From Caldisericum sp. (GTDB taxonomy: Bacteria; Caldisericota; Caldisericia; Caldisericales; Caldisericaceae), in the NCBI GenBank assembly GCA_020692945.1, contig JAIMJY010000006.1:1-35486 (forward strand): DNA of 35,486 bases, read 5' to 3'. Shown here in pieces: positions 4,540 through 35,486 of the stretch. Each line of letters begins with the position of its first letter. Position 1 is the first letter of the stretch. A model generated the notes under the pieces. That model had not been told where the DNA came from, did no database searches, and was given only the letters and a program-made list of their open reading frames with translations. Position numbers and translations under genes: made by a program.

Positions 4540-4612
4540 TTAATCCTTTATAACTTGCAATCTTTTCAGCAAGCTTATCCCCGATCCTTATCAGGGGATT
4601 CCAAAGGAGTAA
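4540..4612 (+). repeat. Pair of 36-nt palindromic units, head-to-head
   Basis: The first unit (4540-4576) has a TTAATCCTTTAT spacer and arms AACTTGC/GCAAGCT around AATCTTTTCA. The second (4577-4612) is in the opposite orientation, with arms ATCCCC/GGGGAT around GATCCTTATCA and ending CCAAAGGAGTAA. Unlike the other pairs, the two hairpins abut with no spacer between them. A third, degenerate palindrome (ATTGC...GCAA, about 4613-4642, containing AAAGACGGCAA) follows directly. The block fills the gap between folD and the phosphoribosyltransferase. Confidence 0.75.
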
Positions 4613-4863
4613 ATTGCAAAGACGGCAACTGCAAGGGAATAAATGAAAGAAAAGAAAGTAAATTCATTAAAAGGAACATGAATTACAGAAGATTAAAGGT
4701 TCTTATCAAAGAAGAGGATGTGAATAGACGGATTAAAGAACTATGCGAGGAAATAGCCAACGATTACCATGGCAAAAAGCCTATTCTCCTATCAATTCTC
4801 AAGGGAGGAGGTTTCTTTCTTGCAGATCTTGCAAGGTCCATAAAACTTGATTTAACAATAGAT

Positions 4864-4902
4864 TTACTCCTTTGTAAACTGCACTCTTCGTAAGCAGTTC
4901 AT
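4864..4902 (+). repeat. Palindromic unit inside hpt (carries in-frame TAA)
   Basis: TTACTCCTTTGT spacer, arms AAACTGC/GCAGTT, loop ACTCTTCGTAA. It sits in the hpt frame between the codons for LTID and ISASSYGG. The insert is 36 nt once one ambiguous original codon is allowed for. Reading through it gives LLCKLHSS, a stop, then AVH. Confidence 0.85.
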
Positions 4903-5025
4903 ATCTCTGCTTCAAGCTATGGAGGAGAAACTGAATCCTCCGGAAATGTGAGGATATTGAAGGACCTATCACAACCGATTGAAAATAAGGATATTATTCT
5001 TGTTGAAGACATAATAGACACAGGC

Positions 5026-5064
5026 TTACTCCTCTGTAACCTGCGCTCTTTTTCAGCAGGTTCT
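5026..5064 (+). repeat. Palindromic unit inside the hpt PRPP loop
   Basis: TTACTCCTCTGT spacer, arms AACCTGC/GCAGGTT and loop GCTCTTTTTCA. It is inserted in-frame as LLCNLRSFSAGS, in the same frame and orientation as the unit at 4864 but without a stop. It splits the conserved DTG-x-TL motif. Confidence 0.88.
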
Positions 5065-5272
5065 ACCCTAAAATCAATATACGACATGCTCAAAACAAGA
5101 AATCCACACAGCATCAAAGTCTGTGTGTTGTTAGACAAACCTTCTCGAAGAAAGGTCAAAGTGCCTGTCCATTACAAAGACTTTGAGATTCCTGACCTTT
5201 TTGTTGTGGAATTCGGAATTGATTTGAGAGAGAGATACAGAAATCTTCCGTACATAGCATATCTTGAATGAT

Positions 5273-6601
5273 CTAACCCAAAATATTTTTCTTCACAATC
5301 TCTCTTCCTTTTTCTATAAGTTTTGCTGAAGCTCCTTTAATGAATTTCTCTTTTATTACGCCTTCAGAGCCGACGATTCTATCTAGCTCCCTTAAGAAAC
5401 TTCCTTTCCTTTTTCTTGAAAATTTTTTTACTTCCCCATAAGCATCCAATCCTTTTTGCCTTAAGAGAAGCTGGAGAATCTCAGAAAAAATCTCAGAGTG
5501 GTTTAACATGTCTTCTCTGATCTTATCTTCCTGCACTTTCATGCTTTGAAGTCCATTGTGCAACATTTTTAAAGAAAGCAGAAGATACGCAAACGACATT
5601 CCAATATTTCTTTTAACGGTAGAATCGGTTAAGTCCCTTTGCAGCCTGGATTTAAGGAGTTTATTGGAGAGAAAGCCAAACATTGCCTCGGCAAGCTCTG
5701 CGTTACCTTCGCTGTTTTCAAATTTTATTGGGTTTATTTTATGTGGCATTGTAGACGAGCCCACGGACTCTTTAGAAACAGTCAAAGAGATGTACTCGAG
5801 AAGGAAATAATTCCAAATGTTTCTATCCGCATCAATAATAACTGAGGAAATCCTCTTAAGCATATCAAAAAGTTTAGCATAGGAGTCTGCCGGCAAAATT
5901 TGAGTTACGAAAATATTCGGCTTTAAGCCTAAATCCCTAACGAAACGCTCAGAGAAAGAAATCCAATCAACCTTTGGGTAGAGAGCGGTAAGCGCATTAT
6001 AGCCTCCTGTTGCTTCTGCAACCTTACCTTCAATCTCAATGTCCTTCAAATCCTTGTAGAGTATCGATAACCTCACTGCATAGTTTATAAACTGTTTACC
6101 AAGTGTAGTTGGAGTAGCGGGTTCCCCATGAGTAAAAGAAAGCATTGAAAGAGATGCATATTCTTCACTTTTTTGTAGAAGAGACTCAATTGCATCTTTA
6201 AGGCTTTTAAGAATAACGTTTCTCCCTTCGTTAAGCATGAGACCATAGCAAAGGTTATTGACATCTTCGGAAGTTAATCCAAAATGAACGAAAGTTTTAA
6301 GATTAGGCAGGACAACGTCTTTTAAAAACTCTACAACAGCATATACGTCGTGTTCCGTTTTTGCCTCATATTTTTTGATCTTTTTTAGTTCTTTAATAGA
6401 AAAACTTTCCTTTATCCTGTCTAAGCATCCTGCGTCAAAGTTAATGCCAGTTTCTTCTAAGAATGCCTTGAGGTAATCTACCTCAACAAAAACGCGTTTC
6501 CTCACGAGGGCGAATTCCGAAAATATCTGGGAAAGCTCCGAGACAAAATCGAAATATCTACCATCAAGAGGAGAGATTTCAAAAAAGTTATCTGTACTCA
6601 A
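5273..6601 (-). CDS. purB: Adenylosuccinate lyase
   Basis: PurB performs two eliminations of fumarate: SAICAR to AICAR, and adenylosuccinate to AMP. The product (about 442 residues) is of the longer E. coli-like type, with the N-terminal FEISPLDGRY, HFGLTSEDVNN, FTHGEPATPTTLGKQF, and the superfamily signature GSSTMPHKINPIKFEN carrying the mobile-loop serine. I favour the TTG at 6601 as start because AGAGAGGTG lies six nt upstream; an in-frame ATG at 6625 has no ribosome site. It overlaps the 3' end of purA by 14 nt, so the two enzymes of the IMP-to-AMP branch are co-translated. It converges with the hpt remnant with only 1 nt between. Confidence 0.93.
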   Translation of the reverse strand: MSTDNFFEISPLDGRYFDFVSELSQIFSEFALVRKRVFVEVDYLKAFLEETGINFDAGCLDRIKESFSIKELKKIKKYEAKTEHDVYAVVEFLKDVVLPNLKTFVHFGLTSEDVNNLCYGLMLNEGRNVILKSLKDAIESLLQKSEEYASLSMLSFTHGEPATPTTLGKQFINYAVRLSILYKDLKDIEIEGKVAEATGGYNALTALYPKVDWISFSERFVRDLGLKPNIFVTQILPADSYAKLFDMLKRISSVIIDADRNIWNYFLLEYISLTVSKESVGSSTMPHKINPIKFENSEGNAELAEAMFGFLSNKLLKSRLQRDLTDSTVKRNIGMSFAYLLLSLKMLHNGLQSMKVQEDKIREDMLNHSEIFSEILQLLLRQKGLDAYGEVKKFSRKRKGSFLRELDRIVGSEGVIKEKFIKGASAKLIEKGREIVKKNILG

Positions 6602-7868
6602 TTGTATCACCTCTCTCGGGTCCATAAGAAAGAATTGTTACGGGGATCCCTGTAAATTTTTCGATAAAGAAAATATATCTTCTAATACCAGCAGGAAGCG
6701 CATCCTTGGCGCGCCCTTTGAGAGCTTCCCACTCGGCCTTCTCAAGGTTTTCGAGTAGCCCAAAAGTCTCATAAATAGGCTTAACCATCTGAAGGTCGTA
6801 AGCGTTTGGAGGAAAATAATCTAATTGTTTCCCGTTCAATTCATATGAAACTGCCACCACGAGATCAGCAATTGATGGGAGAATATCTATTTTGGTAACC
6901 GCTAATTCCTTTATTCCACTTACTTCCACTGCAAATTTGAGTGCAAAGAGATCAAGATAACCAATCCTCCTTGGCCTACCTGTTGTTGCACCGTATTCGT
7001 TACCTTTTTTTCTCAGTATTTCAGCATCAGTTCCATTTATTTCGGTTGGAAACGGTCCTTCGCCCACTCTCGTAGTGTAAGCTTTGGTTATGCCTATAAC
7101 CTTATCTATCGAAGAAAAAGAAACACCCGTACCTGTAAAGGCACCCTGTGCAATTGTATTTGATGAAGTTACAAACGGGTACGTTCCAAAATCAATATCA
7201 AGAAGGACTCCCTGTGCTCCTTCAAAAAGCACTTTTTTACCGTCCTTAAGAAATTTATTTACAAGAAACGATGTACTTTTAACAAACTGTGCAATTTGTT
7301 TTCCGCAGGCTGAATACGAAGCAACAATTTTTGTTTTATACGATTCGAAATCTTCAGGTGTCGTTATTCCTTCAAAGATTAGATAGTCGCGTTTTGCATC
7401 GATAACCTTAGAAATAAAATCCCTTGCATTTGGATGCGTTATATCGCAAATCCTCAGATTAGTCCTTTCCATTTTGTCTTCATATGCAGGACCAATGCCC
7501 TTTCCAGTCGTACCAATGCCATGCCCCTTTGCCCTGTCAATTTCTTTATGGTAAGGCAGTATAACATTAGCTCTATCACTTATAAAAATAGATGGATTAA
7601 TACCAATTGATACGAGATTTTCAAGTTCGCTGACAAGCTCCACAGGGTCAATTACCATTCCATTCCCAAGAATACAGACATTGCCATTTAGAGCACCTGA
7701 TGGGATTTGGTGAAGGCGCACCTCTTTTCCATTATAGAAAACCGTATGGCCAGCATTTGCTCCACCGTTGAATCTGACCACAACATCCATATCTTTCGAA
7801 AGAAAGTCGACAATCTTTCCTTTCCCTTCATCTCCCCACTGCGCTCCAACAACAATTATTCCTGCCAC
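6588..7868 (-). CDS. purA: Adenylosuccinate synthetase
   Basis: PurA makes adenylosuccinate from IMP, aspartate and GTP. The 426-residue product has the usual length. It begins with the GTP-binding P-loop VVGAQWGDEGKGKIVDFL, then RFNGGANAGHTV, the IMP-site TTGKGIGPAYEDK, LFEGAQGVLLDIDFGTYPFVTSSN, GEGPFPTE and TTGRPRRIGYLDL. The start is a GTG at 7868 behind GAGGAGG; an ATG two bases upstream of it is out of frame. It lies downstream of nadC with a 111-nt gap that holds a palindromic pair. NadB and PurA both use aspartate, but the linkage may simply be operon organisation. Confidence 0.96.
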   Translation of the reverse strand: MAGIIVVGAQWGDEGKGKIVDFLSKDMDVVVRFNGGANAGHTVFYNGKEVRLHQIPSGALNGNVCILGNGMVIDPVELVSELENLVSIGINPSIFISDRANVILPYHKEIDRAKGHGIGTTGKGIGPAYEDKMERTNLRICDITHPNARDFISKVIDAKRDYLIFEGITTPEDFESYKTKIVASYSACGKQIAQFVKSTSFLVNKFLKDGKKVLFEGAQGVLLDIDFGTYPFVTSSNTIAQGAFTGTGVSFSSIDKVIGITKAYTTRVGEGPFPTEINGTDAEILRKKGNEYGATTGRPRRIGYLDLFALKFAVEVSGIKELAVTKIDILPSIADLVVAVSYELNGKQLDYFPPNAYDLQMVKPIYETFGLLENLEKAEWEALKGRAKDALPAGIRRYIFFIEKFTGIPVTILSYGPERGDTIEYR

Positions 7869-7944
7869 ATGAACCTCCTCTTATAACTTTTGCAAAAGTT
7901 GGTGGAATTAAATTTAAGATAAAATCACTTTCTACCGTTCTCTT

Positions 7945-8020
7945 TTACTCCTCTGGAATTCACTGAAAAAGAGCGTAAATTACAAAAGATTAAACCTACG
8001 TTCCTTTTCAGTAGGTTTAA
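7945..8020 (+). repeat. Tandem pair of 36-nt palindromic units overlapping the 3' end of nadC
   Basis: Unit 1: TTACTCCTCTGG, arms AATTCAC/GTAAATT (7957-7963 and 7975-7981), loop TGAAAAAGAGC. Spacer ACAAAAGATTA. Unit 2: perfect 8-nt arms AAACCTAC/GTAGGTTT (7992-7999 and 8011-8018), loop GTTCCTTTTCA. The period between the 7-nt arms is 36 nt. Unit 2 and part of the spacer encode the last 13 residues of NadC. Confidence 0.85.
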
Positions 8021-8852
8021 TCTTTAAATTAATGTCAAGACTTTTCGCAGAATGGGTAAGTTTACCCATTGAAATAAAATCAATGCCAAGAGGTGCTATC
8101 AGTTTGATATCTTCCTGAGACATGTTTCCTGAAACTTCAATAAGGCATTTTCCATTGATTATCTTCACTGATTTCTTGATTGTCTCAATATCCATATTAT
8201 CGAGCAGTATTACATCAACGTTACTTGAGAGTGCTTCTTTTACTTCGTCAAGGTTGCTTACCTCTACCTCTATTTTATAATACGGAGAAACTTTTGCCTT
8301 TACCTTTTTTACTGCCTCTGCAATTCCACGAGCTGCTTTTATGTGATTATCTTTTATGAGAACCATATCATACAACCCAAATCGGTGATTCTCGCCACCT
8401 CCGACTTTTACGGCATACTTCTCTAATACTCTAAGAAGAGGCGTTGTTTTCCTTGTGTCAAGGATTTTTACTTTTGTTCCGTGAGCAGCCTTCACACAGT
8501 TGTATGTATACGTTGCAATGCCAGAAAGCCTTTGAAGGAAATTCAGAGCAACACGCTCACCCTCAAGAATTGCTTTTTCCTTTCCGTACACCTCTGCAAT
8601 GATGTCGCCACTTTTTATAAACGCCCCATCAGAAACTTTTAAGGTAACAACAGCTTCAGGATCTAAAAAATGGAAAACTTCTTCAATAAGCGGAAGTCCT
8701 GCGATGACACCGTCTTCCTTCATCATTACAACGGCTTTACCGTACATATTATCACTCACTATAGCTTCCGTTGTTATATCACCAGATCCTATATCCTCTT
8801 CAAGTGCCTTTTTAATGATTTCTCTTAAAAGATGCTTCGGTATTGACATCAC
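7980..8852 (-). CDS. nadC: Nicotinate-nucleotide pyrophosphorylase (quinolinate phosphoribosyltransferase)
   Basis: NadC joins quinolinate and PRPP to give nicotinate mononucleotide, the third step from aspartate to NAD. The 290-residue product has EEDIGSGDITTEA at the N-terminus, LNFLQRLSGIATYT, the substrate-binding LDTRKTTPLLRVLEKYAVKVGGGENHRFGLYD, KDNHIKAA, and late barrel strands VDVILLDNMD and GIDFISMGKLTHSAKSLDI. The start is a GTG at 8852 immediately followed by an ATG, behind GGAGGTG. Its first 41 nt overlap the end of nadB. The last 13 residues (IKPTEKERRFNLL) are read from a palindromic repeat and are not part of the conserved fold, so the ancestral stop was probably replaced by the insertion. 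Confidence 0.95.
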   Translation of the reverse strand: MMSIPKHLLREIIKKALEEDIGSGDITTEAIVSDNMYGKAVVMMKEDGVIAGLPLIEEVFHFLDPEAVVTLKVSDGAFIKSGDIIAEVYGKEKAILEGERVALNFLQRLSGIATYTYNCVKAAHGTKVKILDTRKTTPLLRVLEKYAVKVGGGENHRFGLYDMVLIKDNHIKAARGIAEAVKKVKAKVSPYYKIEVEVSNLDEVKEALSSNVDVILLDNMDIETIKKSVKIINGKCLIEVSGNMSQEDIKLIAPLGIDFISMGKLTHSAKSLDINLKIKPTEKERRFNLL

Positions 8853-10512
8853 GATAAATCACCTCCCCACTCTTTACTCCTCTGTAATTCACTGATAAGG
8901 AGCGTGGATTACAAGGGATTAAAACTGCGCTCCTTTTTAGCAGTTTATCTAAAACAACGTGCTTTAACCATTCGTCACTCGTGTTAGGAAAATCAAATCT
9001 ATAGTGCGCGCCTCGGCTCTCTTCTCTTGTCAATGAGGCATAAGTCATTAGGTAGGCTGTTACAAGTATATTTTTTAGCTCCAAAAAATGCTTACTCTGT
9101 GAGAACATGCCTTTTATTTCTTTTTGCCACTTTTCAATAATTACAAGTGCTTTTTCCAAACCATCTCCACTCCTCATAATACCTACATTATTCCACATTA
9201 ACTGCTGGATATCCTTGCGAGAAAAAGATAAGTCAGGTTTCTCGATAAAAGTCAATTCATTTGAACCATCAAAAACAACATTATCCGTTGAAGAATCAGC
9301 AAGAATTGCTTCAATGCAGGACTTCCCAAACACAAGACATTCAAGAAGAGAGTTACTTGCAAGTCTATTAGCACCATGAAGCCCGGTACAGGCAACCTCG
9401 CCGCAGGCGAACAGATTCTCCAAACTCGTTCTTCCTAACTCATCTGTTTCAATGCCACCCATAAAATAGTGCGCCGCGGGCTCTATAGGGATGGGCGCTT
9501 TTGTGATATCGAAACCAAATTCTTTGCAAGTTGCATAAATGGTGGGAAACCTTTCATGTATTCTCATCTCACCTATGGGAGAAAAGTCAAGGAATATATC
9601 TGCGTTAGTTCTTTTAGCCTCGCTCAACACGGCTCTTGTGGCAATATCTCTTGGCGCTAAATCGGCAAGTTCACTGTAGTTTACCATAAACCTTTCACCG
9701 TAATTATTAAGTAAAACTCCGCCTTCGCCTCTTACCGCTTCAGAGATCAGAAATTTTCGCTTAAGAGGAACTTTCAAAGTGGTAGGATGAAATTGGTAAA
9801 ATTCTAAGTCCATAAGTCTTGCCCCTGCTCTAAAAGCAATGGAAAGCCCAGAACCTTCAACTCCATCAGGATTTGTGGTATTTTGATAAAGCTGACCTGC
9901 TCCTCCTGTCGCCAAAATGAAATACTTTGAAAGGAAAATTTCCACTTCGTTAGAACTGTTCAGAAATGCTCCTCCAACAACAGTATTTCCGTTTGTTGTA
10001 AGGTCAATAAGGTCATAATTCTCAAATATTTTTACATTGCTCCTCCGGCTCGCAATTCGAATAAGCGTTGTCTCCAATTCTTTACCTGTAGCGTCTCCAC
10101 CAGCATGTATTATTCTTCGTTTGCTATGAGCACCCTCTTCTGTTAAAGCCAAGTTTCCGTCTGTCTTATCAAATTTAACGCCAAGGGAAATCAAATCCTT
10201 AATTCTTTCTATCCCTTCCTTTACAGTCTTTTCTACTATCGATTTCTCATTGAGACCCGCTCCTGAATAAAGCGTATCCTGAATGTGAAATTCAACCGCA
10301 TCGTCAGGACCTAAGGCAACCGCAATGCCACCCTGAGCATAGTAACTGCTTCCATCGTTAAGTTTCCCTTTACTAAAAATTGCAACTCTGAAGTTTGATG
10401 GAGCATTTAGTGCGGCAGTTAATCCTGCAACACCACTTCCAACAATAATGATGTCGTATTCACCTTTGACGTTCTCTTTGGAGAAATTTACAAGGAACCT
10501 TTCAAAATTCAT
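8812..10512 (-). CDS. nadB: L-aspartate oxidase
   Basis: NadB oxidises L-aspartate to iminoaspartate with FAD; NadA then uses the product. The 566-residue protein shows the FAD Rossmann loop IIIVGSGVAGLTAAL (residues 21-35), GSSYYAQGGIAVAL, the RRIIHAGGDATGKELE region, the substrate site FHPTTL and SEAVRGEGGVLLN, ACGEVACTGLHGANRLASNSLLE, and a helical C-terminal domain ending SRGAHYRFDFP. After DEWLKHVVLD the frame enters two tandem palindromic units (8874-8947), which encode about 25 residues starting KLLKRSAV, then crosses the nadC ribosome site and start. The tail is therefore acquired. The ATG start overlaps nadA as ATGA. Confidence 0.95.
   Translation of the reverse strand: MNFERFLVNFSKENVKGEYDIIIVGSGVAGLTAALNAPSNFRVAIFSKGKLNDGSSYYAQGGIAVALGPDDAVEFHIQDTLYSGAGLNEKSIVEKTVKEGIERIKDLISLGVKFDKTDGNLALTEEGAHSKRRIIHAGGDATGKELETTLIRIASRRSNVKIFENYDLIDLTTNGNTVVGGAFLNSSNEVEIFLSKYFILATGGAGQLYQNTTNPDGVEGSGLSIAFRAGARLMDLEFYQFHPTTLKVPLKRKFLISEAVRGEGGVLLNNYGERFMVNYSELADLAPRDIATRAVLSEAKRTNADIFLDFSPIGEMRIHERFPTIYATCKEFGFDITKAPIPIEPAAHYFMGGIETDELGRTSLENLFACGEVACTGLHGANRLASNSLLECLVFGKSCIEAILADSSTDNVVFDGSNELTFIEKPDLSFSRKDIQQLMWNNVGIMRSGDGLEKALVIIEKWQKEIKGMFSQSKHFLELKNILVTAYLMTYASLTREESRGAHYRFDFPNTSDEWLKHVVLDKLLKRSAVLIPCNPRSLSVNYRGVKSGEVIYRDVNTEASFKRNH
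8874..8947 (+). repeat. Tandem pair of 36-nt palindromic units translated as the NadB tail
   Basis: Unit 1: TTACTCCTCTGT, arms AATTCAC/GTGGATT (8886-8892 and 8904-8910), loop TGATAAGGAGC. Spacer ACAAGGGATTA. Unit 2: arms AAACTGC/GCAGTTT (8922-8928 and 8940-8946), loop GCTCCTTTTTA. The period is 36 nt. It lies inside the nadB reading frame, 6 nt upstream of the nadC Shine-Dalgarno, so the hairpins are in the nadB-nadC translational junction. Confidence 0.87.
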
Positions 10513-11441
10513 ATTTCAAACATCCTTTCAATTGCAAGCCTTGCCTTCTCTCTAACATCTTCTTTTACCTTAACAACGTATTGCATATTCTCAAGTGAAG
10601 ACAAAACTTTTCCTAAGGTTATCTTCTTCATATTTGGGCAGAAAATTGGTTTGGAAAATGTATAAAATTCTTTAGTAGGATTCTCTTTCTTAAGCCGATA
10701 AATCAAGCCTTCCTCGGTTCCTATTATAAACTGCTTACGAGGAGTGCAGTTTACAGAGGAGTAGAACTCTTTGTTGTTGTCGTTTTTAACATAGTTGAGA
10801 ATGCCCGTCGTACTTTTCACTGCATCTGCAAGTGCTAAAACTTCTCTTTTGCATTCAGGATGAGCAACGAACTTTGCGTCAGGATGAATCCGCTTAATTT
10901 CAAGGACGTCGCTTCTATCAATCACGTTGTGGGTGGGGCAAAAGCCGTCCGAAAGGTAAACTTTTTTTTGCGTATACTCTTGCACGTATGAGCCCAGATT
11001 TCTGTCTGGAATAAAAATCACTTCTTCCGAAGGAACCTTTTCAACGATGCTTACGGCATTGGAAGATGTGCAACAGTAATCACTCATGGCTTTAACTTCA
11101 GCACTCGTATTTACGTAAGCAACAACAAGCGCTTTAGGGTGCTCTACTTTCAATTTTTTAATCTCGCTTACCGTAATTGAGTCGGCAAGAGGGCAGCCAG
11201 CATTCATATCAGGTATCAATACAATCTTGTCCGGGGCTAAAATTGAGATAGTTTCAGCCATAAAGTAAACACCGCAAAGCACTACAACACGCTCTTTCAA
11301 TGTCTTTGCAATTTTTGCTAATTCAAGTGAATCACCAACAAAATCCGCAACATCCTGGACTTTAGCTATCTGATAATTATGAGCAAGAATCACTGCATCT
11401 CTCTCTTTCCTGAGATTGTTAATTTTAGTTACTATATCCAT
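10509..11441 (-). CDS. nadA: Quinolinate synthase, with a 12-residue repeat-encoded insert
   Basis: NadA condenses iminoaspartate with dihydroxyacetone phosphate to quinolinate, using a [4Fe-4S] cluster. The 310-residue product has ILAHNYQ, VLCGVYFMAET (first cluster Cys), MNAGCPLADS, YVNTSAEVKAMSDYCCTSSNA, the central FIPDRNLGSYV, AHPECKREVL and FCPNMKKITLGKV (late Cys). The strand normally reading KEFIIGTEEG is interrupted after NNKE by FYSSVNCTPRKQ, encoded by one 36-nt palindromic unit (10731-10766). The frame stays open and all other motifs are intact, so the enzyme is probably functional with an added loop, which itself carries a Cys. It is the first gene of nadA-nadB-nadC-purA-purB, with a good promoter upstream. 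Confidence 0.95.
   Translation of the reverse strand: MDIVTKINNLRKERDAVILAHNYQIAKVQDVADFVGDSLELAKIAKTLKERVVVLCGVYFMAETISILAPDKIVLIPDMNAGCPLADSITVSEIKKLKVEHPKALVVAYVNTSAEVKAMSDYCCTSSNAVSIVEKVPSEEVIFIPDRNLGSYVQEYTQKKVYLSDGFCPTHNVIDRSDVLEIKRIHPDAKFVAHPECKREVLALADAVKSTTGILNYVKNDNNKEFYSSVNCTPRKQFIIGTEEGLIYRLKKENPTKEFYTFSKPIFCPNMKKITLGKVLSSLENMQYVVKVKEDVREKARLAIERMFEI
10731..10766 (-). repeat. Palindromic unit inserted in-frame in nadA
   Basis: On the nadA coding strand: TTCTACTCCTCTGT spacer, arms AAACTGC/GCAGTTT, loop ACTCCTCGTAA. The 36 nt encode FYSSVNCTPRKQ. The frame used differs from the one used in hpt, so the element is open in more than one frame. Confidence 0.9.
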
Positions 11442-11476
11442 TGTGCCTCCATTACTTAAACCATTGAAGCCAATAA

Positions 11477-11505
11477 ATTATACCAGAAAAATGCAAGAAT
11501 GTGAA
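11477..11505 (-). promoter_or_regulatory. Promoter of the nadA-nadB-nadC-purA-purB cluster
   Basis: Minus strand: -35 TTCACA (11505-11500), 17-nt spacer, -10 TATAAT (11482-11477) preceded by TGG (extended -10). The predicted transcript has a leader of about 30 nt with GGAGG before the nadA ATG at 11441. Confidence 0.7.
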
Positions 11506-11582
11506 AATTAAACAGAGCAAAGCCGCTAAAAGATTAAAAAGTCTTTACTAACTCACTGCGAATTCTGACATTTTTAATTAGA

Positions 11583-14300: not shown

Positions 14301-14411
14301 TATCCCTTTCTCATTAACTACAGAAAGGTTATCAACTTTAAAGAGAGCCTCTTCTGCTTTGTACGTATCACATACGTTTTATTTAAACCTTCATGAGGTC
14401 TATTTGGTTTC

Positions 14412-15875: not shown

Positions 15876-15880
15876 TTTTA

Positions 15881-17888: not shown

Positions 17889-19100
17889 ATGAAAAACGAA
17901 GGACTTCTGAAACTTGAATGGGCGAAGGAACACATGCCGATACTTAAAATGCTTGAAAAAGATTTTGCAAAACGCAAACCATTTAAAGGGATTAATATTG
18001 CACTATCCATACACCTTGAGGCAAAAACTGCAAATCTTTCGCTTCTTTTAAGGAGTGGAGGGGCAAACATCTTTGTTACAGGTTCAAATCCACTCTCAAC
18101 ACAGGACGACGTCGTTAGCGCTCTTATAGAGAAAGGAATGACCGTCTTTGCTCATCATGGAGAAAGCGAAAAGGAGTATTGGGAGAACAGAAACAAAACA
18201 TTAGACATCAAGCCACAAATAATAGTTGATGACGGGGGGGATCTGGTGTATCTTGTCCACAAGAAAAGGAAAGAACTTCTTAAGGGAATCATCGGCGCAA
18301 ACGAGGAAACAACGACAGGCGTTATAAGAGATAAAGCGCTAGAAAAAGCAGGTAAATTGAAATTTCCTGTAATTGCGGTAAACAACGCAAAGTGCAAACA
18401 CTTCTTTGATAACAAATACGGCACAGGACAATCCACCTGGGATGGAATAATGCGCACCACAAACATCACTGTTGCAGGGAAAACAGTTGTTGTTTCAGGG
18501 TATGGATGGGTAGGGAAAGGCATTGCAATGCGTGCAAAAGGACTTGGGGCAAAAGTAGTAGTGACCGAAGTTGATCCAATAAGCGCAATGGAAGCATATA
18601 TGGATGGGTTCGACATAAGAGAAATGAAAGATGCAGCAAAAATTGGAGATATATTCGTAACTGGGACAGGTAACACAAACGTGATTGACTCAAGACACTT
18701 TGAACTTCTGAAAGACGGGGCAATCCTTGCAAACGCTGGGCACTTTGATGTTGAGGTAAAAATGGACGACCTCAAAAAAATTGCTAAGAGCCATCGCGAG
18801 GTTAGAAAAAATATCACCGAATACACACTTCCAAACGGAAGGAGGGCCTATGTCCTTGGTGAAGGACGGCTCGTTAACCTTGCTTGTGCAGATGGACATC
18901 CTATTGAAATAATGGACCTTTCATTTGCAGTGCAAGCACTTGCGGCAGAGTACATAGTAAAAAACAAACTCGAAAATAAGGTGTACGATGTTCCAGACGA
19001 GATAGACCAAAAAGTAGCCGATGCATTCCTTGATTCATACGAAATTAAAATTGACAAGCTCACAAAAGAGCAGATTAACTATTTAACAAAACCACATTAA
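17889..19100 (+). CDS. ahcY: Adenosylhomocysteinase (S-adenosyl-L-homocysteine hydrolase)
   Basis: This enzyme hydrolyses S-adenosylhomocysteine to adenosine and homocysteine with bound NAD, clearing the product inhibitor of methyltransferases. The 403-residue protein is the shorter archaeal/thermophile-like form. Features are [11 protein letters not shown], the substrate region [30 protein letters not shown], the ETTTGVIR substrate loop, [23 protein letters not shown], the NAD Rossmann loop [39 protein letters not shown], and [21 protein letters not shown]. The start ATG at 17889 follows CAAGGAGG; an in-frame upstream ATG at 17835 has no site. A palindromic element begins right after the stop. 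Confidence 0.96.
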
Positions 19101-19135
19101 TCTGCTGAGTAAAGTACAGATTACAAAATATTAAA
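19097..19135 (-). repeat. Palindromic unit between ahcY and the next gene
   Basis: Arms AATCTG/CAGATT (19099-19104 and 19117-19122) around a GAGTAAAG-type loop, then ACAAAATATTAAA. The element is in the reverse orientation, and its right flank runs straight into the GGAGG that serves the gene at 19146. Confidence 0.65.
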
Positions 19136-19145
19136 GGAGGGAAAC

Positions 19146-19874: not shown

Positions 19875-19906
19875 GGTTTTTCTCAATTAGCAGGACACTG
19901 TCTAAA

Positions 19907-20695: not shown

Positions 20696-20750
20696 AAGCA
20701 ACTCCTCTTACATCGTAACCCCTTATTAATCAGGCCAAGCATTCTGACAA

Positions 20751-20824
20751 AAACCTGCTGAGAAAGTCGCAGATTTAATCCCTTGTAATCCACGCTCCTT
20801 ACCAGTGAATTACAGAGGAGTAAA
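20751..20824 (-). repeat. Tandem pair of palindromic units in a convergent intergenic gap
   Basis: Reading +: arms AACCTGC/GCAGATT, loop TGAGAAAGTC; spacer TTAATCCCTTGT; arms AATCCAC/GTGAATT, loop GCTCCTTACCA; ACAGAGGAGTAAA. This is the same two-hairpin layout as at 8874-8947 in the opposite orientation. It lies between the convergent genes ending at 20695 and 20993, where it could end transcripts, though there is no T-run. Confidence 0.82.
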
Positions 20825-22219: not shown

Positions 22220-22231
22220 ATAGAAACTCCT

Positions 22232-22298
22232 TTATTCCTCTGTAACCTGCACTCTTTTTCAGCAGGTTTATTCCTCTGGAATCCGCACTCATTTTCTC
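22232..22298 (+). repeat. Tandem palindromic units, second one broken
   Basis: Unit 1: TTATTCCTCTGT, perfect arms AACCTGC/GCAGGTT (22244-22250 and 22262-22268), loop ACTCTTTTTCA. Unit 2 starts after TATTCCTCTGG with AATCCGC (22280-22286) and ACTCATTTTCT, but has no closing arm. The period is exactly 36 nt. Confidence 0.87.
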
Positions 22299-22339
22299 CT
22301 ATGAATTTGCTCCACCTAAAGAAAAAAAACAAAAAGAGG

Positions 22340-22380
22340 GATTGCCACGCTCGTAAAAGACACTTGCTCGCAATGACAAA
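22340..22380. repeat. Fragment of a second dispersed repeat family
   Basis: GATTGCCACGCTCG followed by GCTCGCAATGACAAA. This inverted-repeat arrangement is the kind of short dispersed repeat found in many bacterial genomes and matches fragments near 34.2 kb (GTCATCGCAAGG, GAGATTGCTTCGCTTCG). It abuts the palindromic unit at the end of miaA. Confidence 0.5.
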
Positions 22381-22417
22381 TCCGACTGTCATCGTTCACT
22401 CCTTTTCAGCGGATTTA
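22378..22417 (+). repeat. Modified palindromic unit encoding the MiaA C-terminus
   Basis: Arms AAATCCG/CGGATTT (22378-22384 and 22410-22416). The interior keeps TCACTCCTTTTCA next to the right arm but is longer than usual and begins with bases from the neighbouring second-family repeat. The miaA stop lies inside it. Confidence 0.65.
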
Positions 22418-23306
22418 CTAATTTCTCTATTTCTGGAAGCACGCTTTTTAAATTAGAACTGTCAAACCAAATTACATCACGCTCTTTTTTGAACCATGTA
22501 ATCTGCCTTTTTGCAAAGTTGCGCGTTCTTTGCTTGATTATTTCCCGAGCATCGTCAAGCGTAATGTGTCCTTCAAGATAATCGATTAATTCCTTATAAC
22601 CAATTGCCTGAAGCGCTGTTTTAGACCATTTTTCGTATTTGCTCTTTAACTCCTCAACCTCTTTTACAAGACCTTTTTCAAACATTATATCAACACGTTC
22701 GTTTATGTTCTCGTACAACTTTTCTCTATCTTTTGTTAAGCCTATCTTCAAAAATTCCAGATTAGACGGGTTATTTGTAACAGACGAAATCAATTTACCG
22801 GTTTGTTTGTAGTATTCAACTACCCGAATGAGCCGTTTACGGTCAGAAGCACCAATGCGACTTACTGCAACAGGATCAATTTCTGCTGCATTTTTTCTAA
22901 GTTCCTCTATTGGGATATCCATAAGAGCTTTTCGGAGTTCAAAATTTGGTTCGACTGATTCCTCAACGGGAAAATTTTCCGTGACTGCTCTTATATAGAG
23001 CCCAGAACCTCCAACTATGAGTGGAACTCTTCCTCTCTCCACAATCTCAGGAATTAAATTCATCACGTTTTTTTTAAAATCAGCAACACTATACTCCTCT
23101 GAAATATCAATTATATCAATCATATGGTGGGGAATTTTATCACGAATCTCTTTTGAAACTTTGGCTGTACCTATATCCATGCCTTTGTAAAACTGCATAG
23201 AATCGGCAGAGATGATTTCTAATGGAAATCTCCCTGCAAGATATAGAGTAACATCACTTTTGTGGGTAGAAGTTGCACCAAGAATAACGAGAATCTTATC
23301 TTTCAC
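22389..23306 (-). CDS. miaA: tRNA dimethylallyltransferase
   Basis: MiaA adds a dimethylallyl group to A37 of tRNAs reading UNN codons; MiaB then methylthiolates it, and its gene is directly upstream. The 305-residue product has ISADSMQFYKGMDIGTAK, HHMIDIIDI, YSVADF, LIVGGSGLYIRAV, RIGASDRKRLIRVVEYY, TALQAIGYKEL and the C-terminal RTRNFAKRQITWFKKE. The P-loop is unusual: LGATSTHKSD, with His where GxTxxGK[ST] has Gly. The GTG start at 23306 has AGAGGTG upstream and overlaps miaB by 11 nt. The last residues (about NPLKRSER) are read from a modified palindromic repeat. Confidence 0.94.
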   Translation of the reverse strand: MKDKILVILGATSTHKSDVTLYLAGRFPLEIISADSMQFYKGMDIGTAKVSKEIRDKIPHHMIDIIDISEEYSVADFKKNVMNLIPEIVERGRVPLIVGGSGLYIRAVTENFPVEESVEPNFELRKALMDIPIEELRKNAAEIDPVAVSRIGASDRKRLIRVVEYYKQTGKLISSVTNNPSNLEFLKIGLTKDREKLYENINERVDIMFEKGLVKEVEELKSKYEKWSKTALQAIGYKELIDYLEGHITLDDAREIIKQRTRNFAKRQITWFKKERDVIWFDSSNLKSVLPEIEKLVNPLKRSER

Positions 23307-25657: not shown

Positions 25658-25680
25658 TTGGTTGTTTCAAAGGTCTTTTG

Positions 25681-26460: not shown

Positions 26461-26474
26461 CATTCACCTCAAAC

Positions 26475-26500
26475 CAAAAAGTGCTAGCAGAAGCTAGCAC
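26475..26500 (-). terminator. Rho-independent terminator downstream of rplY
   Basis: Minus strand: perfect 8-bp hairpin GTGCTAGC-TTCT-GCTAGCAC (26500-26481) followed by TTTTT. It is 110 nt after the rplY stop and only about 15 nt before the ymdB start. Confidence 0.87.
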
Positions 26501-26535
26501 GAAATGTACATACAAACATTCTACGAAGTCTTCCT

Positions 26536-26610
26536 GTACTCCTCTGGAATCCGCCCTCTTCTTCCGCGGATTTACTCCTCTGAAAACTGCACTCTTCTTC
26601 AGCGGATTGT
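26536..26610 (+). repeat. Tandem palindromic units downstream of rplY
   Basis: Unit 1: GTACTCCTCTGG, perfect arms AATCCGC/GCGGATT (26548-26554 and 26566-26572), loop CCTCTTCTTCC. Unit 2: TACTCCTCTGA, AAACTGC (26584-26590), loop ACTCTTCTTCA, right arm GCGGATT (mismatched, as if taken from the other subtype). The period is 36 nt. A further half-unit ending GCAGGTTTA (26632-26640) lies in the end of rplY. Confidence 0.85.
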
Positions 26611-26613
26611 AAG

Positions 26614-27339
26614 CTATTTCTTCTCTTCTTTAGCAGGTTTAGCTTCTGGTGTTTTGGCAGCCTTTCCAGTTTCTGGAGTTTTGGCAGCCTTTCCAGTTTC
26701 AGGTTCTTTGCCTTCCTTAGTAGATTCTGGAGACGCAGCAGTAGCAGCGGCAACTTCCTCTACGGCAGGAGCAGGAGCAACTTCTTCAACAGTAGGTGTA
26801 ACTACGGAGAAGACAACTGTGTCTGGCGGAGTGAGAAGCTTCACCTTATCACTTAATGAAAGGTTATGAACGTAAATTACATCCTTGATTTCAAGGTTAG
26901 TCACGTCAACTTCAACTTTCTCTGGAAGGTCTGTAAGGAGTCCTTCAACTTGAAGCTCACGCAGTGTCTGGTCAAGTATTCCGCCTAACTTTACGCCTTT
27001 TGCTTCTCCGACAGCAACGACAGGAACCTTTGTATAAACAGGCTTACTGAGATTTACTGTTTCAAAATCAACATGGAGAATCTTTCTTCCAATATGTTCT
27101 TTTTGAATTTCTTTAAATATTGAAGGATGAACCGTACCGTCGATATCAAGATCGACGAGAACGTTTTTTCCATATTTTTCTGTAATAAGAACAAGGTCTC
27201 GCTCTTTCACTTTAACGGTAACGCTCACGGCACCTTCTCCGTAAACCACAGCTGGAACGAACCCTTCACTTCTAACTTTATTTAAACTTCCTTTTGTGTT
27301 TACTTCTCTCTTTACTGCACTTAATTGAACTCTTTTCAC
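26614..27339 (-). CDS. rplY: Ribosomal protein bL25, CTC type with low-complexity tail
   Basis: bL25/CTC binds 5S rRNA on the large ribosomal subunit. The 241-residue product has the N-terminal L25 domain (VKREVNTKGSLNKVRSEGFVPAVVYGE), the IGRKILHVDFETVNLSKPV strand region, and the TL5/CTC C-terminal beta domain (VKLGGILDQTLRELQVEGLLTDLPEKVEVDVTNL type). It ends in an Ala/Glu/Lys/Pro tail with two copies of PETGKAAKT. The GTG at 27339 is chosen over the ATG at 27357, because the ATG lies inside the GGAGGAGG site that serves the GTG. The final residues KPAKEEKK are read through sequence resembling a palindromic half-unit. Confidence 0.92.
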   Translation of the reverse strand: MKRVQLSAVKREVNTKGSLNKVRSEGFVPAVVYGEGAVSVTVKVKERDLVLITEKYGKNVLVDLDIDGTVHPSIFKEIQKEHIGRKILHVDFETVNLSKPVYTKVPVVAVGEAKGVKLGGILDQTLRELQVEGLLTDLPEKVEVDVTNLEIKDVIYVHNLSLSDKVKLLTPPDTVVFSVVTPTVEEVAPAPAVEEVAAATAASPESTKEGKEPETGKAAKTPETGKAAKTPEAKPAKEEKK

Positions 27340-27374
27340 GAGTATATCCTCCTCCAAATAAATTTCAACATTAA

Positions 27375-27401
27375 ATTATACATATTTTCAATCTTTTTCA
27401 A
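27375..27401 (-). promoter_or_regulatory. Probable promoter for rplY within the end of prs
   Basis: Minus strand TATAAT at 27380-27375 with TTGAAA at 27401-27396 (15-nt spacer, or 16 if TTTGAA is counted). The -35 overlaps the last codons of prs. It would let rplY be transcribed separately from the tdh-prs operon. Confidence 0.45.
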
Positions 27402-30894: not shown

Positions 30895-30903
30895 TTTAAC
30901 CTC

Positions 30904-31932: not shown

Positions 31933-31987
31933 TTGTTCCTCCTCTCACGCCAAAAACCTTTTGAATAACCCCATTGATGTATTAATC

Positions 31988-32030
31988 TTAATCTTCTGGA
32001 ATCTGCTGATAAGGATCGCGGATTACTGGC
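31988..32030 (+). repeat. Palindromic unit in the tdh leader
   Basis: TTAATCTTCTGG spacer, arms AATCTGC/GCGGATT (32000-32006 and 32018-32024), loop TGATAAGGATC, then ACTGG. The loop matches the one at 4577-4612 (TGATAAGGATC on the other strand). Confidence 0.8.
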
Positions 32031-32240
32031 TTGAAAACAAAAAAAAGTTTAATTATAATATCACTTAATTCTTCCATTGTTATCTCCAAAATATTTTATC
32101 ATTTTTTAGAAATTTTCCTATACTCTAATCTGTGCGATTTTCCAAATTTTCAATGTTCGAACGGGATCAGCTTACCCCTTCAATAATTCGTACGAGAAGA
32201 TTATTCATAGGGAATGAGTTATGAATACAAAGAAATAAAC

Positions 32241-32279
32241 GTAATCTTCTGTAATCCGCACTCTGCTTCAGCGGATTCA
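32241..32279 (+). repeat. Palindromic unit, intergenic
   Basis: GTAATCTTCTGT spacer, perfect arms AATCCGC/GCGGATT (32253-32259 and 32271-32277), loop ACTCTGCTTCA. Confidence 0.85.
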
Positions 32280-32635
32280 TACAAATGATTAAGGACAAGG
32301 TTGCTTCGCTCCTCATTTGCTGCAAACTTTTTAACCCTCTCATACTCTCCCTATACGTAAATATACAAAGGGGTATAGAGATTTTTTAAAGAAAGCAAGG
32401 AAAAACGCAGAAAAAAGATTTTTTAAGAAACTTTTAAGAGGCTATTGACATAGATCTTAATTTTGCTAAAACAATGTAAAGAAATTTTGTGAACTGATGC
32501 ATAAGTTTGTATATTAAAAATGATAAGTTTGGCGACAGTATCGCTGATTACAAAAGAGTAGTTGACCCATCGTAGCTTTAAGGGAACAATACAAAAATAG
32601 ATTTTAGAAATACTAACATATTCAGGGAGGAAATA

Positions 32636-33844
32636 GTGGAAAAATACAAAATTTCTAAGTGGAGATGGATTGTTCTTGCTGTTTATATGTACATAGCAGT
32701 TCTTACACAATTGTATTGGTTAAACTTTGCTGCAATTGACACCTATCTTGAAGAACATCTTCAAATCCCTGCAATGAAAGTAGGCTTTCTTACTCTTGTA
32801 TTTCCCTTGCTGTTCCTTTTTCTTTCTATACCATCAGGTATTATTATCGACAAAAAGGGATATAAATTTGGAGTAAGCATAGGTGCCATCCTTACGGGAG
32901 CATTTGCTCTATTTCGTCTGATCAATCCCAATTCTTATAACATCCTTTTAATTTCTCAAATAGGAATATCTATTGGCCAGCCTTTCGTGTTAAACGGCAT
33001 TACGAAACTTTCTCTTACCTGGTTTCCAAAGAGAGAAGAAGCTACAGCGGTAGGGCTCGGCTCCTTATCATTATTTCTTGGCATGATAATAGGGCTCGGT
33101 GCAACGCCTCCACTCGTCGAATCCCTTGGATTTAAATCGATGTTACTCATCTACGGTGTTATGGGAGCAATAAGCATACCAATCTTCTTTATCTTCACGA
33201 AAGCCAAACCTTCCTCTGCTCAAAATGAAATAGGCACAGAGGAGATTTCATACATCGACGGCATAAAAAAAATTTCCAAAATAAGAAACTTCATTATCCT
33301 CGGGTTTATAGCTTTGATTGGCATCGGAGTTTTTAATGGGCTGCTAACGTGGCTTGAAAAGATACTGAATGAAGTCCACCATATCTCAATGATAAAGGCT
33401 GGCAATATCTCCTCGATGTTAGTCCTGAGCGGCATGATAGGATGTATAGCAATCCCCATGATTTCTGATAAAGTTATGAAAAGGAAACCATTTCTTATGA
33501 TTGCGTCCTTAATCGGCATAATATCGGTTATAGTTCTGATGTTTGCAAGAAGTTTCTTAGTTGACGCGGTAAACGCAATCGTAATGGGATTCTTTGTCGT
33601 TTCCACACTTCCGATAATCCTTACAATGTCGGCAGAGATTGCAGGAGAAAAATTTGCAGGGATTTCTTCGGCATATCTTCAGCTTTTAGGCAACGGAGCT
33701 GCCGCTGCTATCGTTCCGATAATAGAAGCCATTCATAAATTAACGGGACAATACACCTTGCCACTTGCAATGCTTGCAGTGCTATTTGGGATACTTTTTA
33801 TAACTGTGCTATTCATAGGAGAAACTTTTAAGAAACAGTTTTAA
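32636..33844 (+). CDS. Major facilitator superfamily transporter, substrate unknown
   Basis: A 402-residue membrane protein with twelve predicted helices in two six-helix bundles and a central hydrophilic loop (about 185-205, KAKPSSAQNEIGTEEIS). The MFS loop 2-3 motif is present as GIIIDKKGYKFGVSIGAIL (G-x3-D-x2-G-x-[KR] type), with a weaker equivalent ISDKVMKRKPFL in the second half. The N-terminus (ISKWRWIVLAVYMYIAVLTQLYWLNFA) resembles the FLVCR-like and related uncharacterised MFS proteins of anaerobes. The start is a GTG at 32636 behind GGGAGGAAA. Specificity cannot be read from the sequence; the divergent neighbour tdh gives no firm clue. Confidence 0.88.
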   Translation: MEKYKISKWRWIVLAVYMYIAVLTQLYWLNFAAIDTYLEEHLQIPAMKVGFLTLVFPLLFLFLSIPSGIIIDKKGYKFGVSIGAILTGAFALFRLINPNSYNILLISQIGISIGQPFVLNGITKLSLTWFPKREEATAVGLGSLSLFLGMIIGLGATPPLVESLGFKSMLLIYGVMGAISIPIFFIFTKAKPSSAQNEIGTEEISYIDGIKKISKIRNFIILGFIALIGIGVFNGLLTWLEKILNEVHHISMIKAGNISSMLVLSGMIGCIAIPMISDKVMKRKPFLMIASLIGIISVIVLMFARSFLVDAVNAIVMGFFVVSTLPIILTMSAEIAGEKFAGISSAYLQLLGNGAAAAIVPIIEAIHKLTGQYTLPLAMLAVLFGILFITVLFIGETFKKQF

Positions 33845-34573
33845 AAATTTACAAGACAGCTAACCCTGGATTTTTCTTATTGATTTTTAGTAAATTGTGA
33901 TTCAAGTTTGTTTGGATAGTGTCCAATCGTGCAATGTTTGATTAAGACTTAACCTGAGCTTTTCTCCAAATGTTCCTATAATCTTTTGGAATTGGTAAAG
34001 ACGGCAATAGATGAGAGTAAACGCTGTGTTTGCGATTCGCAAGGAAAAGAGTGCGCAAAGACTTTTTTCTTGTCACCCTGAGCGCTTTTTGCGCAATCCT
34101 TTCTCGACGAAGTCGAGTGGGTTTCTCTTTCTTACTCTGTCACTGCGAGAAGTAAGTGAAATAAACGACGTGGCAGTCTCGCACCCCTTCTGTCATCGCA
34201 AGGGTACACTCTTCTTGTGCCCGTGGCGATCTCGCTTTTAGGTATTCCTCAAAAGCCAACGGCGAGATTGCTTCGCTTCGACTTGACTTCGTCAAGGAAC
34301 AGAGCGCAAAGACAGGAAAAAGGCAAAAAGGCTTTCTAAACCGTTGCAGAATGGAAGTGAAATAGAAAGAGATGATTGATTTTCATTTTGTTGTATCCGC
34401 TAAATTAAGGGATAGTGTATAATAAGTAGAGGGAGAAAGGATAAATATTTTAAGAAAGCGATTACCAGACAAAATGCTTGGTATATAAACAATTGTTTTA
34501 TAAACGAGTTGGCGAAAACTGACAGCAAGATATTTATATTAATAAAACAATAATATAAAAAAGGAGGAAAATA
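33845..34573. other. Intergenic region rich in dispersed repeats
   Basis: 729 nt with no supportable gene; the open frame at 34011-34241 lies across repeats and looks spurious. A degenerate palindromic unit (about 33972-34013, ATTGGTAAAGACGGCAAT core) resembles the third hairpin near 4613-4642. A second-family repeat begins at 34071. At 34150-34340 there are hairpin-forming segments such as CTTGACTTCGTCAAG. TATAAT at 34418-34423 may be a -10 for the reductase gene, with no clear -35. Confidence 0.5.
34071..34149 (+). repeat. Second-family dispersed repeat, copy 1
   Basis: Starts TGTCACCCTGAGCGCTTTTT, contains the hairpin CTCGAC-GAA-GTCGAG, then GTGGG and TCTTTCTTACTC, and ends TGTCACTGCGAG. 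Nearly the same sequence recurs at 35283-35362 in the same orientation. It is visibly richer in GC than its surroundings. Confidence 0.85.
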
Positions 34574-35239
34574 ATGAAAGTATTCACAGTTAACGGGAGT
34601 CCAAAGATGGAGAAAGGAAACACTTCTCTAATCCTGAATCCTTTTCTTGAAGGAATGAGAGAAGCAGGAGCAGAGTATGAGCTCTTTTACACAAGCAAGC
34701 TCAAGATTGGTCCATGCATAGGCGATTTTATTTGTTGGGATGAGAAACCCGGGAAGTGCATCATTAATGATGATATGCAAATGCTATATCCAAAGCTCCG
34801 CAATGCAGATATTCTTGTCCTGGCGACACCTGTATACGTACCCCTTCCAGGTAATTTTCAAAATTTTTTAAATAGGCTTTTACCATTAATTGATCCTGTA
34901 CTTCAGGTAAAGGCGGGCCGGACTCGGGCAAAGCTTCACAAAGATGTTAATATTAGCAAAATCGTGCTTGTATCAACTTGCGGCTGGTGGGAGAAAGGCA
35001 ATTTTGGAACAGTCATTCGCATAGCCAAAGAGTTTGCAAAGGATGTAAACGTAGAATTTGCAGGTGCAGTGCTCAGGCCTCATTCTGATTATCTCGGCAA
35101 AGATAATAAGAAGACAATGAGAGTTTTTGAGAATTGTAAGCTTGCAGGCTACCAGCTTGTAAAAGAAGGAAAAATGCATTCCGATACTCTCAAAGTTATC
35201 GGCAGTCCACTTGTATCCAGGAAAAAATATGTTGATTAA
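34574..35239 (+). CDS. Flavodoxin-fold NAD(P)H:FMN reductase-like protein
   Basis: A 221-residue flavodoxin-like protein of the iron-sulfur flavoprotein / NADPH-dependent FMN reductase type. The FMN phosphate loop is VNGSPKMEKGNTSLIL (residues 6-21) and a second flavin-contact region is ATPVYVPLPGNFQNFLNRL. The segment GPCIGDFICWDEKPGKC is the cysteine region that in related iron-sulfur flavoproteins reads CxxCxxCx(n)C; here one cysteine is Asp, so three Cys remain and a [4Fe-4S] cluster is doubtful. The ATG follows AAGGAGGAAAATA. It stands alone between two direct copies of the second-family repeat. Substrate unknown; a role in redox balance or quinone reduction is a guess. Confidence 0.87.
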   Translation: MKVFTVNGSPKMEKGNTSLILNPFLEGMREAGAEYELFYTSKLKIGPCIGDFICWDEKPGKCIINDDMQMLYPKLRNADILVLATPVYVPLPGNFQNFLNRLLPLIDPVLQVKAGRTRAKLHKDVNISKIVLVSTCGWWEKGNFGTVIRIAKEFAKDVNVEFAGAVLRPHSDYLGKDNKKTMRVFENCKLAGYQLVKEGKMHSDTLKVIGSPLVSRKKYVD

Positions 35240-35282
35240 GAAATGAATTAATTAAAGGAAGCTCAGGTAGACCTGCCGTCCC

Positions 35283-35362
35283 TGTCACCCTGAGCGCTTT
35301 TTGCACACTCTTTTCGTTGACGTAGTCGAGTGGGTCCCTCTTTCTTACTCTGTCACTGCGAG
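35283..35362 (+). repeat. Second-family dispersed repeat, copy 2
   Basis: TGTCACCCTGAGCGCTTTTT, then a diverged hairpin (GTTGAC-GTA-GTCGAG), GTGGG, TCTTTCTTACTC and TGTCACTGCGAG. It is a direct repeat of 34071-34149 about 1.2 kb away. Confidence 0.85.
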
Positions 35363-35456
35363 GCGGTGAGGTTTTATGAATGAGGGCAAGGTTCTAGAAT
35401 AAGGAGGAAGCAGAAAAGATAGTAAGTGCTGAATTTGCGAAAAGAAGATAAAACAT

Positions 35457-35486
35457 AACCTGCTGAGAAAGATCGCAGGTTACAGA
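35457..35486 (-). repeat. Palindromic unit cut by the window end
   Basis: Perfect arms AACCTGC/GCAGGTT (35457-35463 and 35475-35481), loop TGAGAAAGATC, then ACAGA, the beginning of the reverse spacer ACAGAGGAGTAA. Confidence 0.85.

What the first reader, a model, noticed from the sequence alone, without database searches (positions are those of the whole stretch)
4540..35486. A 36-nt modular palindromic element family with covarying arms
About 17 units share one architecture: 11-nt spacer plus a 25-nt hairpin (7-11-7). Pairs at 7957/7993, 8886/8922, 22244/22280 and 26548/26584 keep an exact 36-nt arm-to-arm period. The arms vary together: AACCTGC/GCAGGTT, AATCCGC/GCGGATT, AAACTGC/GCAGTTT, AACCTAC/GTAGGTT, AATTCAC/GTGAATT, ATCCCC/GGGGAT. 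Compensatory change across copies means the hairpin, not the sequence, is kept. Rickettsia palindromic elements and REP/BIME units are the nearest known concepts; I recognise no described family with this sequence. No mobilising enzyme is in the window.
Basis: seen in the sequence. Interest (0 to 1): 0.85.

Follow-up and report, generated by a model that had tools for sequence, protein, structure and literature searches.

The report
Tiny mobile hairpins inside essential genes
A 36-letter DNA hairpin has spread to hundreds of places in this bacterium's genome, including the middle of many important genes, where it mostly adds twelve extra amino acids instead of breaking the protein; how it copies itself is unknown.

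Summary
The window holds about 20 copies of a 36-nt unit: an 11-nt spacer and a 7-11-7 hairpin. At least 234 distinct hairpins lie in the half of this 1.5-Mb draft genome that I read, against a null of zero. A sister genus has about 98 copies; other members of the family have few. The arms covary far beyond shuffled controls. Isolated copies have sharp edges. Excising exactly 36 nt restores empty sites, in a relative's gene and in other units, so the "36-nt period" pairs are tandem or nested insertions.

37 copies interrupt 26 conserved genes, typically as exact 12-, 24- or 36-residue in-frame inserts (argS, mnmE, cmk, gcvPA/B, nrdD, recF). Others, such as nadA, carry inserts too. Four of the six reading frames are used; the two stop-containing frames almost never are, so the inserts are translated.

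Best reading: a non-autonomous, probably single-strand-mobilised palindromic element that works like Rickettsia palindromic elements and intragenic REPs but lacks their defining tags and loop size. No Y1 (HUH) transposase, TnpB, IS110 or reverse transcriptase was found in the genome. New variant of a known kind; the mobilising activity is unknown.

The parts
4539..4613 (.). Degenerate pair of units upstream of hpt: one + at 4539-4575 and a hairpin ATCCCC/GGGGAT at about 4563-4613
   Evidence: cmsearch E 9e-4; hairpin score 21 bits; read
4661..4697 (-). Unit overlapping the start of the hpt homology
   Evidence: cmsearch 38.7 bits
4696..5271 (+). Hypoxanthine phosphoribosyltransferase-like gene (hpt) that carries two units
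   Evidence: 45% identity to a G006 protein of 183 aa across both inserts; named from its PRPP-binding motif VEDIIDTG
4863..4898 (+). Unit inside hpt, 12 codons, reads LLLCKLHSS*AV: contains an in-frame TAA
   Evidence: Alignment with 12-residue gap in the G006 homologue
5025..5060 (+). Unit inside hpt, 12-residue in-frame insert next to VEDIIDTG
   Evidence: cmsearch 59.3 bits; alignment; DNA fold -6.2 kcal/mol, z -4.2
7944..8017 (+). Nested pair: host unit (arms AACCTAC/GTAGGTT) with a reverse 36-nt unit inside (7957-7994, -); supplies the C-terminal codons of nadC
   Evidence: Excision of 36 nt restores a 53-bit host unit
8873..8946 (+). Nested pair: host unit (arms AAACTGC/GCAGTTT) with a reverse 36-nt unit inside (8886-8923, -); lies in the C-terminal part of the nadB ORF
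   Evidence: Excision of 36 nt restores a 52-bit host unit; fold z -4.0; ORF
10728..10765 (-). Unit inside nadA: in-frame 12-residue insert
   Evidence: 12 extra columns found only in this protein among 22 NadA; the insert is the only region of low confidence in the model
10509..11441 (-). nadA, quinolinate synthase, host gene
   Evidence: NF006878 401.8 bits, cut-off 294
19099..19135 (-). Weak unit
   Evidence: cmsearch E 1.8e-4
20747..20824 (-). Nested pair: host unit (AATCTGC/GCAGGTT) with a reverse unit inside (20774-20811)
   Evidence: fold z -3.6
22231..22266 (+). First unit of a tandem pair
   Evidence: cmsearch 60.6 bits
22267..22418 (+). Second unit of the tandem pair, split by another dispersed repeat; its right arm forms the C-terminal codons of the miaA-like ORF (22389-23306, -)
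   Evidence: Read directly; ORF; homology to G006 stops at 22416
26535..26608 (+). Tandem pair, period 36
   Evidence: Tandem repeats finder period 36
32000..32026 (-). Hairpin with poor spacer
   Evidence: cmsearch E 0.0022
32240..32277 (+). Single unit
   Evidence: cmsearch 47.1 bits
35457..35486 (-). Unit cut by the contig end
   Evidence: cmsearch 40.1 bits, truncated

Best explanation
It is a non-autonomous mobile hairpin element of 36 nt that works like Rickettsia palindromic elements. Shown: copies are net insertions of 36 nt with sharp ends, placed after a YT dinucleotide and before AT-rich sequence. Because the unit itself ends in TT, and has AA at its stem base (TT on the other strand) and a T-rich loop, new copies also land next to or inside old ones and give tandem and nested arrays. 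Shown: 36 nt is 12 codons and four of the six frames are open, so copies survive inside conserved genes as translated 12-residue inserts, while copies in the stop frames are almost absent. Inferred: the arms covary because the folded single strand is what an enzyme supplied in trans recognises during copying, with insertion into single-stranded target DNA. Not identified: that enzyme.
For: Genome-wide family. Covariation. Sharp edges. Empty sites: a transposase gene in G005 lacks exactly 36 nt; a paralogue and a G006 site agree. 28 nested insertions restored by removing 36 nt. 39 units crossed by homologous protein alignments, no frameshift, typical gaps of 12, 24 or 36 residues. Frame use 36 open to 1 stop, P 6e-6 per unit and 4e-4 per gene. 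NadA insert unique among 22 homologues and modelled as an unordered loop on an intact fold. G.T and A.C mismatches nearly equal outside the closing pair, so no sign of selection on one RNA strand.
Against: No candidate mobiliser: Y1_Tnp, TnpB, RVT_1 and IS110 families absent from the genome. No population data, so present-day mobility is not shown. Copies are on average 72% identical, so much of the spread may be old. One gene-internal copy lies in a stop frame (L192:3006) and another carries a TAA (window 4863).
Confidence: 0.8

Rival explanations
1. A true REP/BIME family mobilised by a REP-associated tyrosine transposase (Y1, HUH) that has since been lost from this genome or is missing from the draft.
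For: Hairpin units, arrays in both orientations, T-rich target, no clear target duplication. A Y1 gene exists in G007, which also has about 98 copies.
Against: No GTAG tag in the consensus. No Y1 gene in G000. No unit near the Y1 genes fetched from relatives. Presence of Y1 does not follow copy number across genomes.
Confidence: 0.12
2. A functional RNA hairpin (terminator, stabiliser or regulator) kept at each site by selection.
For: Paired arms are conserved; most copies are intergenic.
Against: No enrichment between convergent genes. Both orientations occur inside genes (12 sense, 25 antisense). G.U is not favoured over A.C outside the closing pair. Sites are not shared with G006 in the genes compared.
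Confidence: 0.05
3. The insert is removed from the message or skipped by the ribosome, as in mitochondrial bypassing elements.
For: Two genes hold in-frame stops within a unit. Some sites are next to conserved motifs, such as VEDIIDTG in hpt.
Against: Strong avoidance of the two stop frames, which removal would make unnecessary; some or all of the stop-bearing genes may be decaying.
Confidence: 0.04
4. Local slippage or template switching made the repeats in place, without mobility.
For: Tandem copies with period 36 exist.
Against: 116 of 187 clusters are single units at unrelated places; empty sites at single insertions; almost the same inner unit in different host units.
Confidence: 0.01

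Closest known systems
Rickettsia palindromic elements (RPEs)
   Same: Dispersed palindromes inserted in-frame in unrelated housekeeping genes and translated, no dedicated transposase known (PMC10969869, PMC3733652).
   Different: The review gives about 150 bp for RPEs; here a fixed 36-nt unit with an 11-nt loop, hundreds of copies, nested and tandem insertion, in an unrelated lineage.
CGTC-tagged REPs (include RPE-4 and RPE-6)
   Same: Short hairpins, arrays in both orientations, intragenic copies, no associated transposase (PMC3733652).
   Different: CGTC tag, 4-5-nt loop and CCA tail are absent here (against PMC3733652).
GTAG REPs / BIMEs with RAYT
   Same: 20-40-nt palindromes, hundreds of copies, mostly intergenic, arrayed (PMC3733652).
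   Different: No GTAG tag, no RAYT in the genome, 11-nt loop.
Organelle short palindromic repeats (Volvox)
   Same: Short palindromes that insert into one another and occur in both orientations (PMC2670323).
   Different: Those spread in intergenic DNA and introns rather than coding sequence and have 3-5-nt loops.
Mitochondrial bypassing elements of yeasts (byps)
   Same: Many short hairpin inserts within genes (from memory).
   Different: Byps are skipped by the ribosome; here stop frames are avoided, which points to translation.

Membership tests
GTAG REP / RAYT system | Unpaired GTAG tetranucleotide at one end | tested here: not met
   Consensus ends are TTTACTCC and GGATT; no GTAG
GTAG REP / RAYT system | Associated tyrosine transposase gene flanked by the repeats | tested here: not met
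   PF01797 absent from G000; no unit in the flanks of the Y1 genes fetched from relatives
GTAG REP / RAYT system | 20-40-nt palindrome in many copies, in arrays | tested here: met
CGTC REP | CGTC tag at one end | tested here: not met
CGTC REP | 4-5-nt loop and CCA-like tail | tested here: not met
   11-nt loop with conserved sequence
Rickettsia palindromic elements | In-frame insertion in unrelated genes, translated | tested here: met
   translation is inferred from frame use
Rickettsia palindromic elements | Sequence similarity to an RPE family | not tested
   No RPE sequences were compared directly; Rfam gave no hit
MITE | Terminal inverted repeats of a parent transposon plus target-site duplication | tested here: not met
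   No duplication beyond TT; no parent found among the four families searched
CRISPR array | Identical repeats separated by unique spacers of even size | tested here: not met
   The 11-nt spacer is itself conserved and copies are dispersed
Any Rfam RNA family | Match at gathering score | tested here: not met
   0 matches in the window

The most novel reading that the evidence does not exclude
The hairpin is propagated by an enzyme or host process not so far linked to any palindromic repeat, and it seeds new 12-residue surface loops across the core proteome of a deep-branching bacterial family, independently of Rickettsia and of RAYT-type REPs.
Probability: 0.35. Interest if true: 0.85.

Novelty: new variant of a known kind. 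Interest (0 to 1): 0.64.

Why it matters
In-frame palindromic insertions are best known from Rickettsia, and for the related CGTC repeats no dedicated transposase is known. A second, unrelated lineage with a shorter and more frequent unit, clean empty sites, nested insertions that fix the exact ends, and at least 26 interrupted conserved genes gives many natural replicates. It makes two open questions testable: what copies such elements, and how often mobile DNA adds tolerated segments to essential proteins.

Tried and rejected
(1) Arms copied from the target site: suggested by hpt and nadA, where arm and target match; across 89 isolated units the left flank does not match the arm above chance. 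(2) Target-site duplication: none detected beyond TT. (3) RAYT, TnpB, RT and IS110 as mobilisers: none in G000. (4) Units flanking Y1 genes in relatives: none. (5) Terminator role: no gene-orientation bias. (6) RNA-level selection after insertion: G.U not favoured over A.C except at the closing pair. (7) Composites amplified as 72-nt blocks: reverse composites show no correlation of inner and host similarity (r about 0), so independent nesting is favoured; the direct class shares almost the same inner unit in different hosts. (8) A naming scan with NadA returned no named member of this lineage, so no tool named the organism.

Full report
What was checked. The window is one contig (C69) of a 1.505-Mb, 207-contig draft genome, 99.4% complete. 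A pattern for the spacer gives 145 genome hits against 1 for the reversed control. I collected units by spacer and loop alone, without looking at the arms, and then tested the arms: 825 of 1025 cells in the inner five pairs are Watson-Crick, against 540 +- 14 when arms are shuffled (smaller set). On 72 aligned units 94.8% of cells pair, two-sided changes are 99 against 32 shuffled, and sliding the partner by one column drops pairing to about 40%. The covariation claim holds. The shuffles ignore relatedness, and the 72 units were picked with some regard to pairing, but the arm-blind set and the slide control make an artefact unlikely.

Anatomy. Isolated units (90) have sharp edges: information rises at position 1 and falls after position 38, with background on both sides. 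The unit is TTTACTCCTCT (spacer), GT, a 7-bp stem AANNNNN/NNNNNTT with free inner bases, and an 11-nt loop [AG][CA]TCYTTTTCA. Left of the net insertion is YT (62 TT and 18 CT of 88); right of it is mostly TA, AT or AC. No longer duplication is seen. As single-stranded DNA the unit at 5025 folds at -6.2 kcal/mol, z -4.2.

The net insertion is 36 nt. A transposase gene of G000 and its 83%-identical relative in G005 differ by 36 nt at the unit. A paralogous locus on contig C92 and a site in G006 agree. The 72-nt arrays that look like BIMEs resolve in the same way: removing 36 nt restores a complete second unit with paired arms, for example TTTACTCCTCTGTAA|ACTGCGCTCCTTTTTAGCAGTTT at window 8873-8946. 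28 such nested cases were found. 18 are reverse insertions near the stem base; most of the others share nearly the same inner unit in very different hosts. That is evidence that units move and carry their own arms. A control of excisions at shifted places also restored units in 116 of 832 trials, mainly because shifted cuts in tandem arrays do so, so I rely on the non-tandem classes.

Copies inside genes. With proteins read from all of G006, 39 units are crossed by a homologous alignment, none with a frameshift. In the clean cases the gap is exactly 12, 24 or 36 residues for one, two or three units; mnmE carries three, and a molybdopterin dehydrogenase FAD-binding subunit three. Some alignments are loose around the insert, so the exact residue count is secure only for the clean cases, and one (L054:13420) lies on the strand opposite to a gene and is probably spurious. 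Genes with units include argS, gcvPA, gcvPB, cmk, mnmE, a moeA-type protein, leuS (C-terminus), dxs (N-terminus), nadA and recF, and an anaerobic ribonucleotide reductase, two P-type ATPases, a PolX-like polymerase, an ABC-F-like ATPase, an M50 protease, a YchF-like GTPase and an IS transposase. The unit has two open frames on each strand. Of 37 scored units, 18+6 read the antisense open frames, 7+5 the sense open frames and 1 a stop frame, where a third would be expected (P 6e-6 per unit, 4e-4 counted per gene). Hence the inserts are translated and under selection. 37 units lie inside homology-supported genes where 175 would be expected by length, so most insertions in genes are lost. NadA shows the case cleanly: 12 extra columns in one of 22 proteins, and a structure model of mean pLDDT 92.9 in which the only segment below 50 is residues 222-232, the insert, between a helix and a strand.

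Distribution. Model hits: G000 at least 146 (the search saturates), G007 98, G006 13, G002 10, G005 6, G013 6, several others 2 or 0; outside the family one hit in one genome. In G006 my stricter scan finds 10 units, none inside an ORF of at least 120 aa. G006 is one contig of 1,558,103 bases; from memory that is the size of Caldisericum exile, which would place the lineage in Caldisericaceae. No tool named it.

How it works. Shown: dispersed net 36-nt insertions, paired arms, target preference, nesting, and frame selection. Inferred: arms stay paired because the folded strand is what is copied or cut. The near equality of G.T and A.C mismatches outside the closing pair (48 against 44) argues against selection on one RNA strand after insertion and fits recognition as DNA. 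Insertion after a short T-rich target without a clear duplication, and a unit end that recreates the target, resemble single-strand transposition by HUH enzymes. But no Y1, TnpB, RT or IS110 gene was found in this genome. The enzyme may be lost, missing from the draft, or of another kind.

Known or new. No paper found in the held library describes such repeats in this lineage. The element behaves like Rickettsia palindromic elements (PMC10969869) and intragenic REPs (PMC3733652), but it fails the tag and loop features of the GTAG and CGTC superfamilies as that paper defines them. I call it a new variant of a known kind.

Limits. One draft genome carries most of the evidence and half of it was read, with preference for contigs that hold units. 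The comparison proteome is one relative. Copies in G007 could not be read. Two genes hold in-frame stops in a unit (window 4863; L192:3006) and may be decaying or use another start.

Noticed in passing
window 34071-34149, 35283-35362 and about 22325-22400: A second family of dispersed repeats (TGTCACCCTGAG..., ...CACTGCGAG / CGCAATGACA); a copy of this type splits the unit at 22267-22418.
   Followed up: no
L053:621-3323 (-): Anaerobic ribonucleotide reductase with a probable intein that itself holds two units; a further unit lies in its ATP-cone region.
   Followed up: partly
L166:2710-3825 (+): An IS transposase gene (rve domain) interrupted in frame by a unit; the intact-site relative is L277 in G005.
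   Followed up: yes
window 4863-4898 and L192:3006-3043: Units that bring in-frame stops into genes with homologues: decaying genes, alternative starts, or unusual decoding.
   Followed up: partly
L178:2302, L158:6593, L041:14363, L053:1788, L165:4118, L180:11156: A near-identical sub-family (TACTCCTCTGTAATCCGAGATCATTTTCATCGAATT and close variants) sits at the same point inside different host units; perhaps the most recently active form.
   Followed up: partly
Contig ends of C25, C34, C80, C89, C150, C154, C179, C186, C205 and window end 35457-35486: Many contigs start or end inside a unit, so tandem or identical copies probably break the assembly and copy number is underestimated.
   Followed up: no
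window 26644-26710: 27-nt tandem repeat coding the C-terminal tail of a ribosomal L25-like protein.
   Followed up: no
G007 (C60, C32, C86, C70, C73, C38) and G001:C190: The second high-copy genome has five TnpB-like genes and one Y1 gene, and G001 has a reverse transcriptase; none of these families is in the window's genome.
   Followed up: partly
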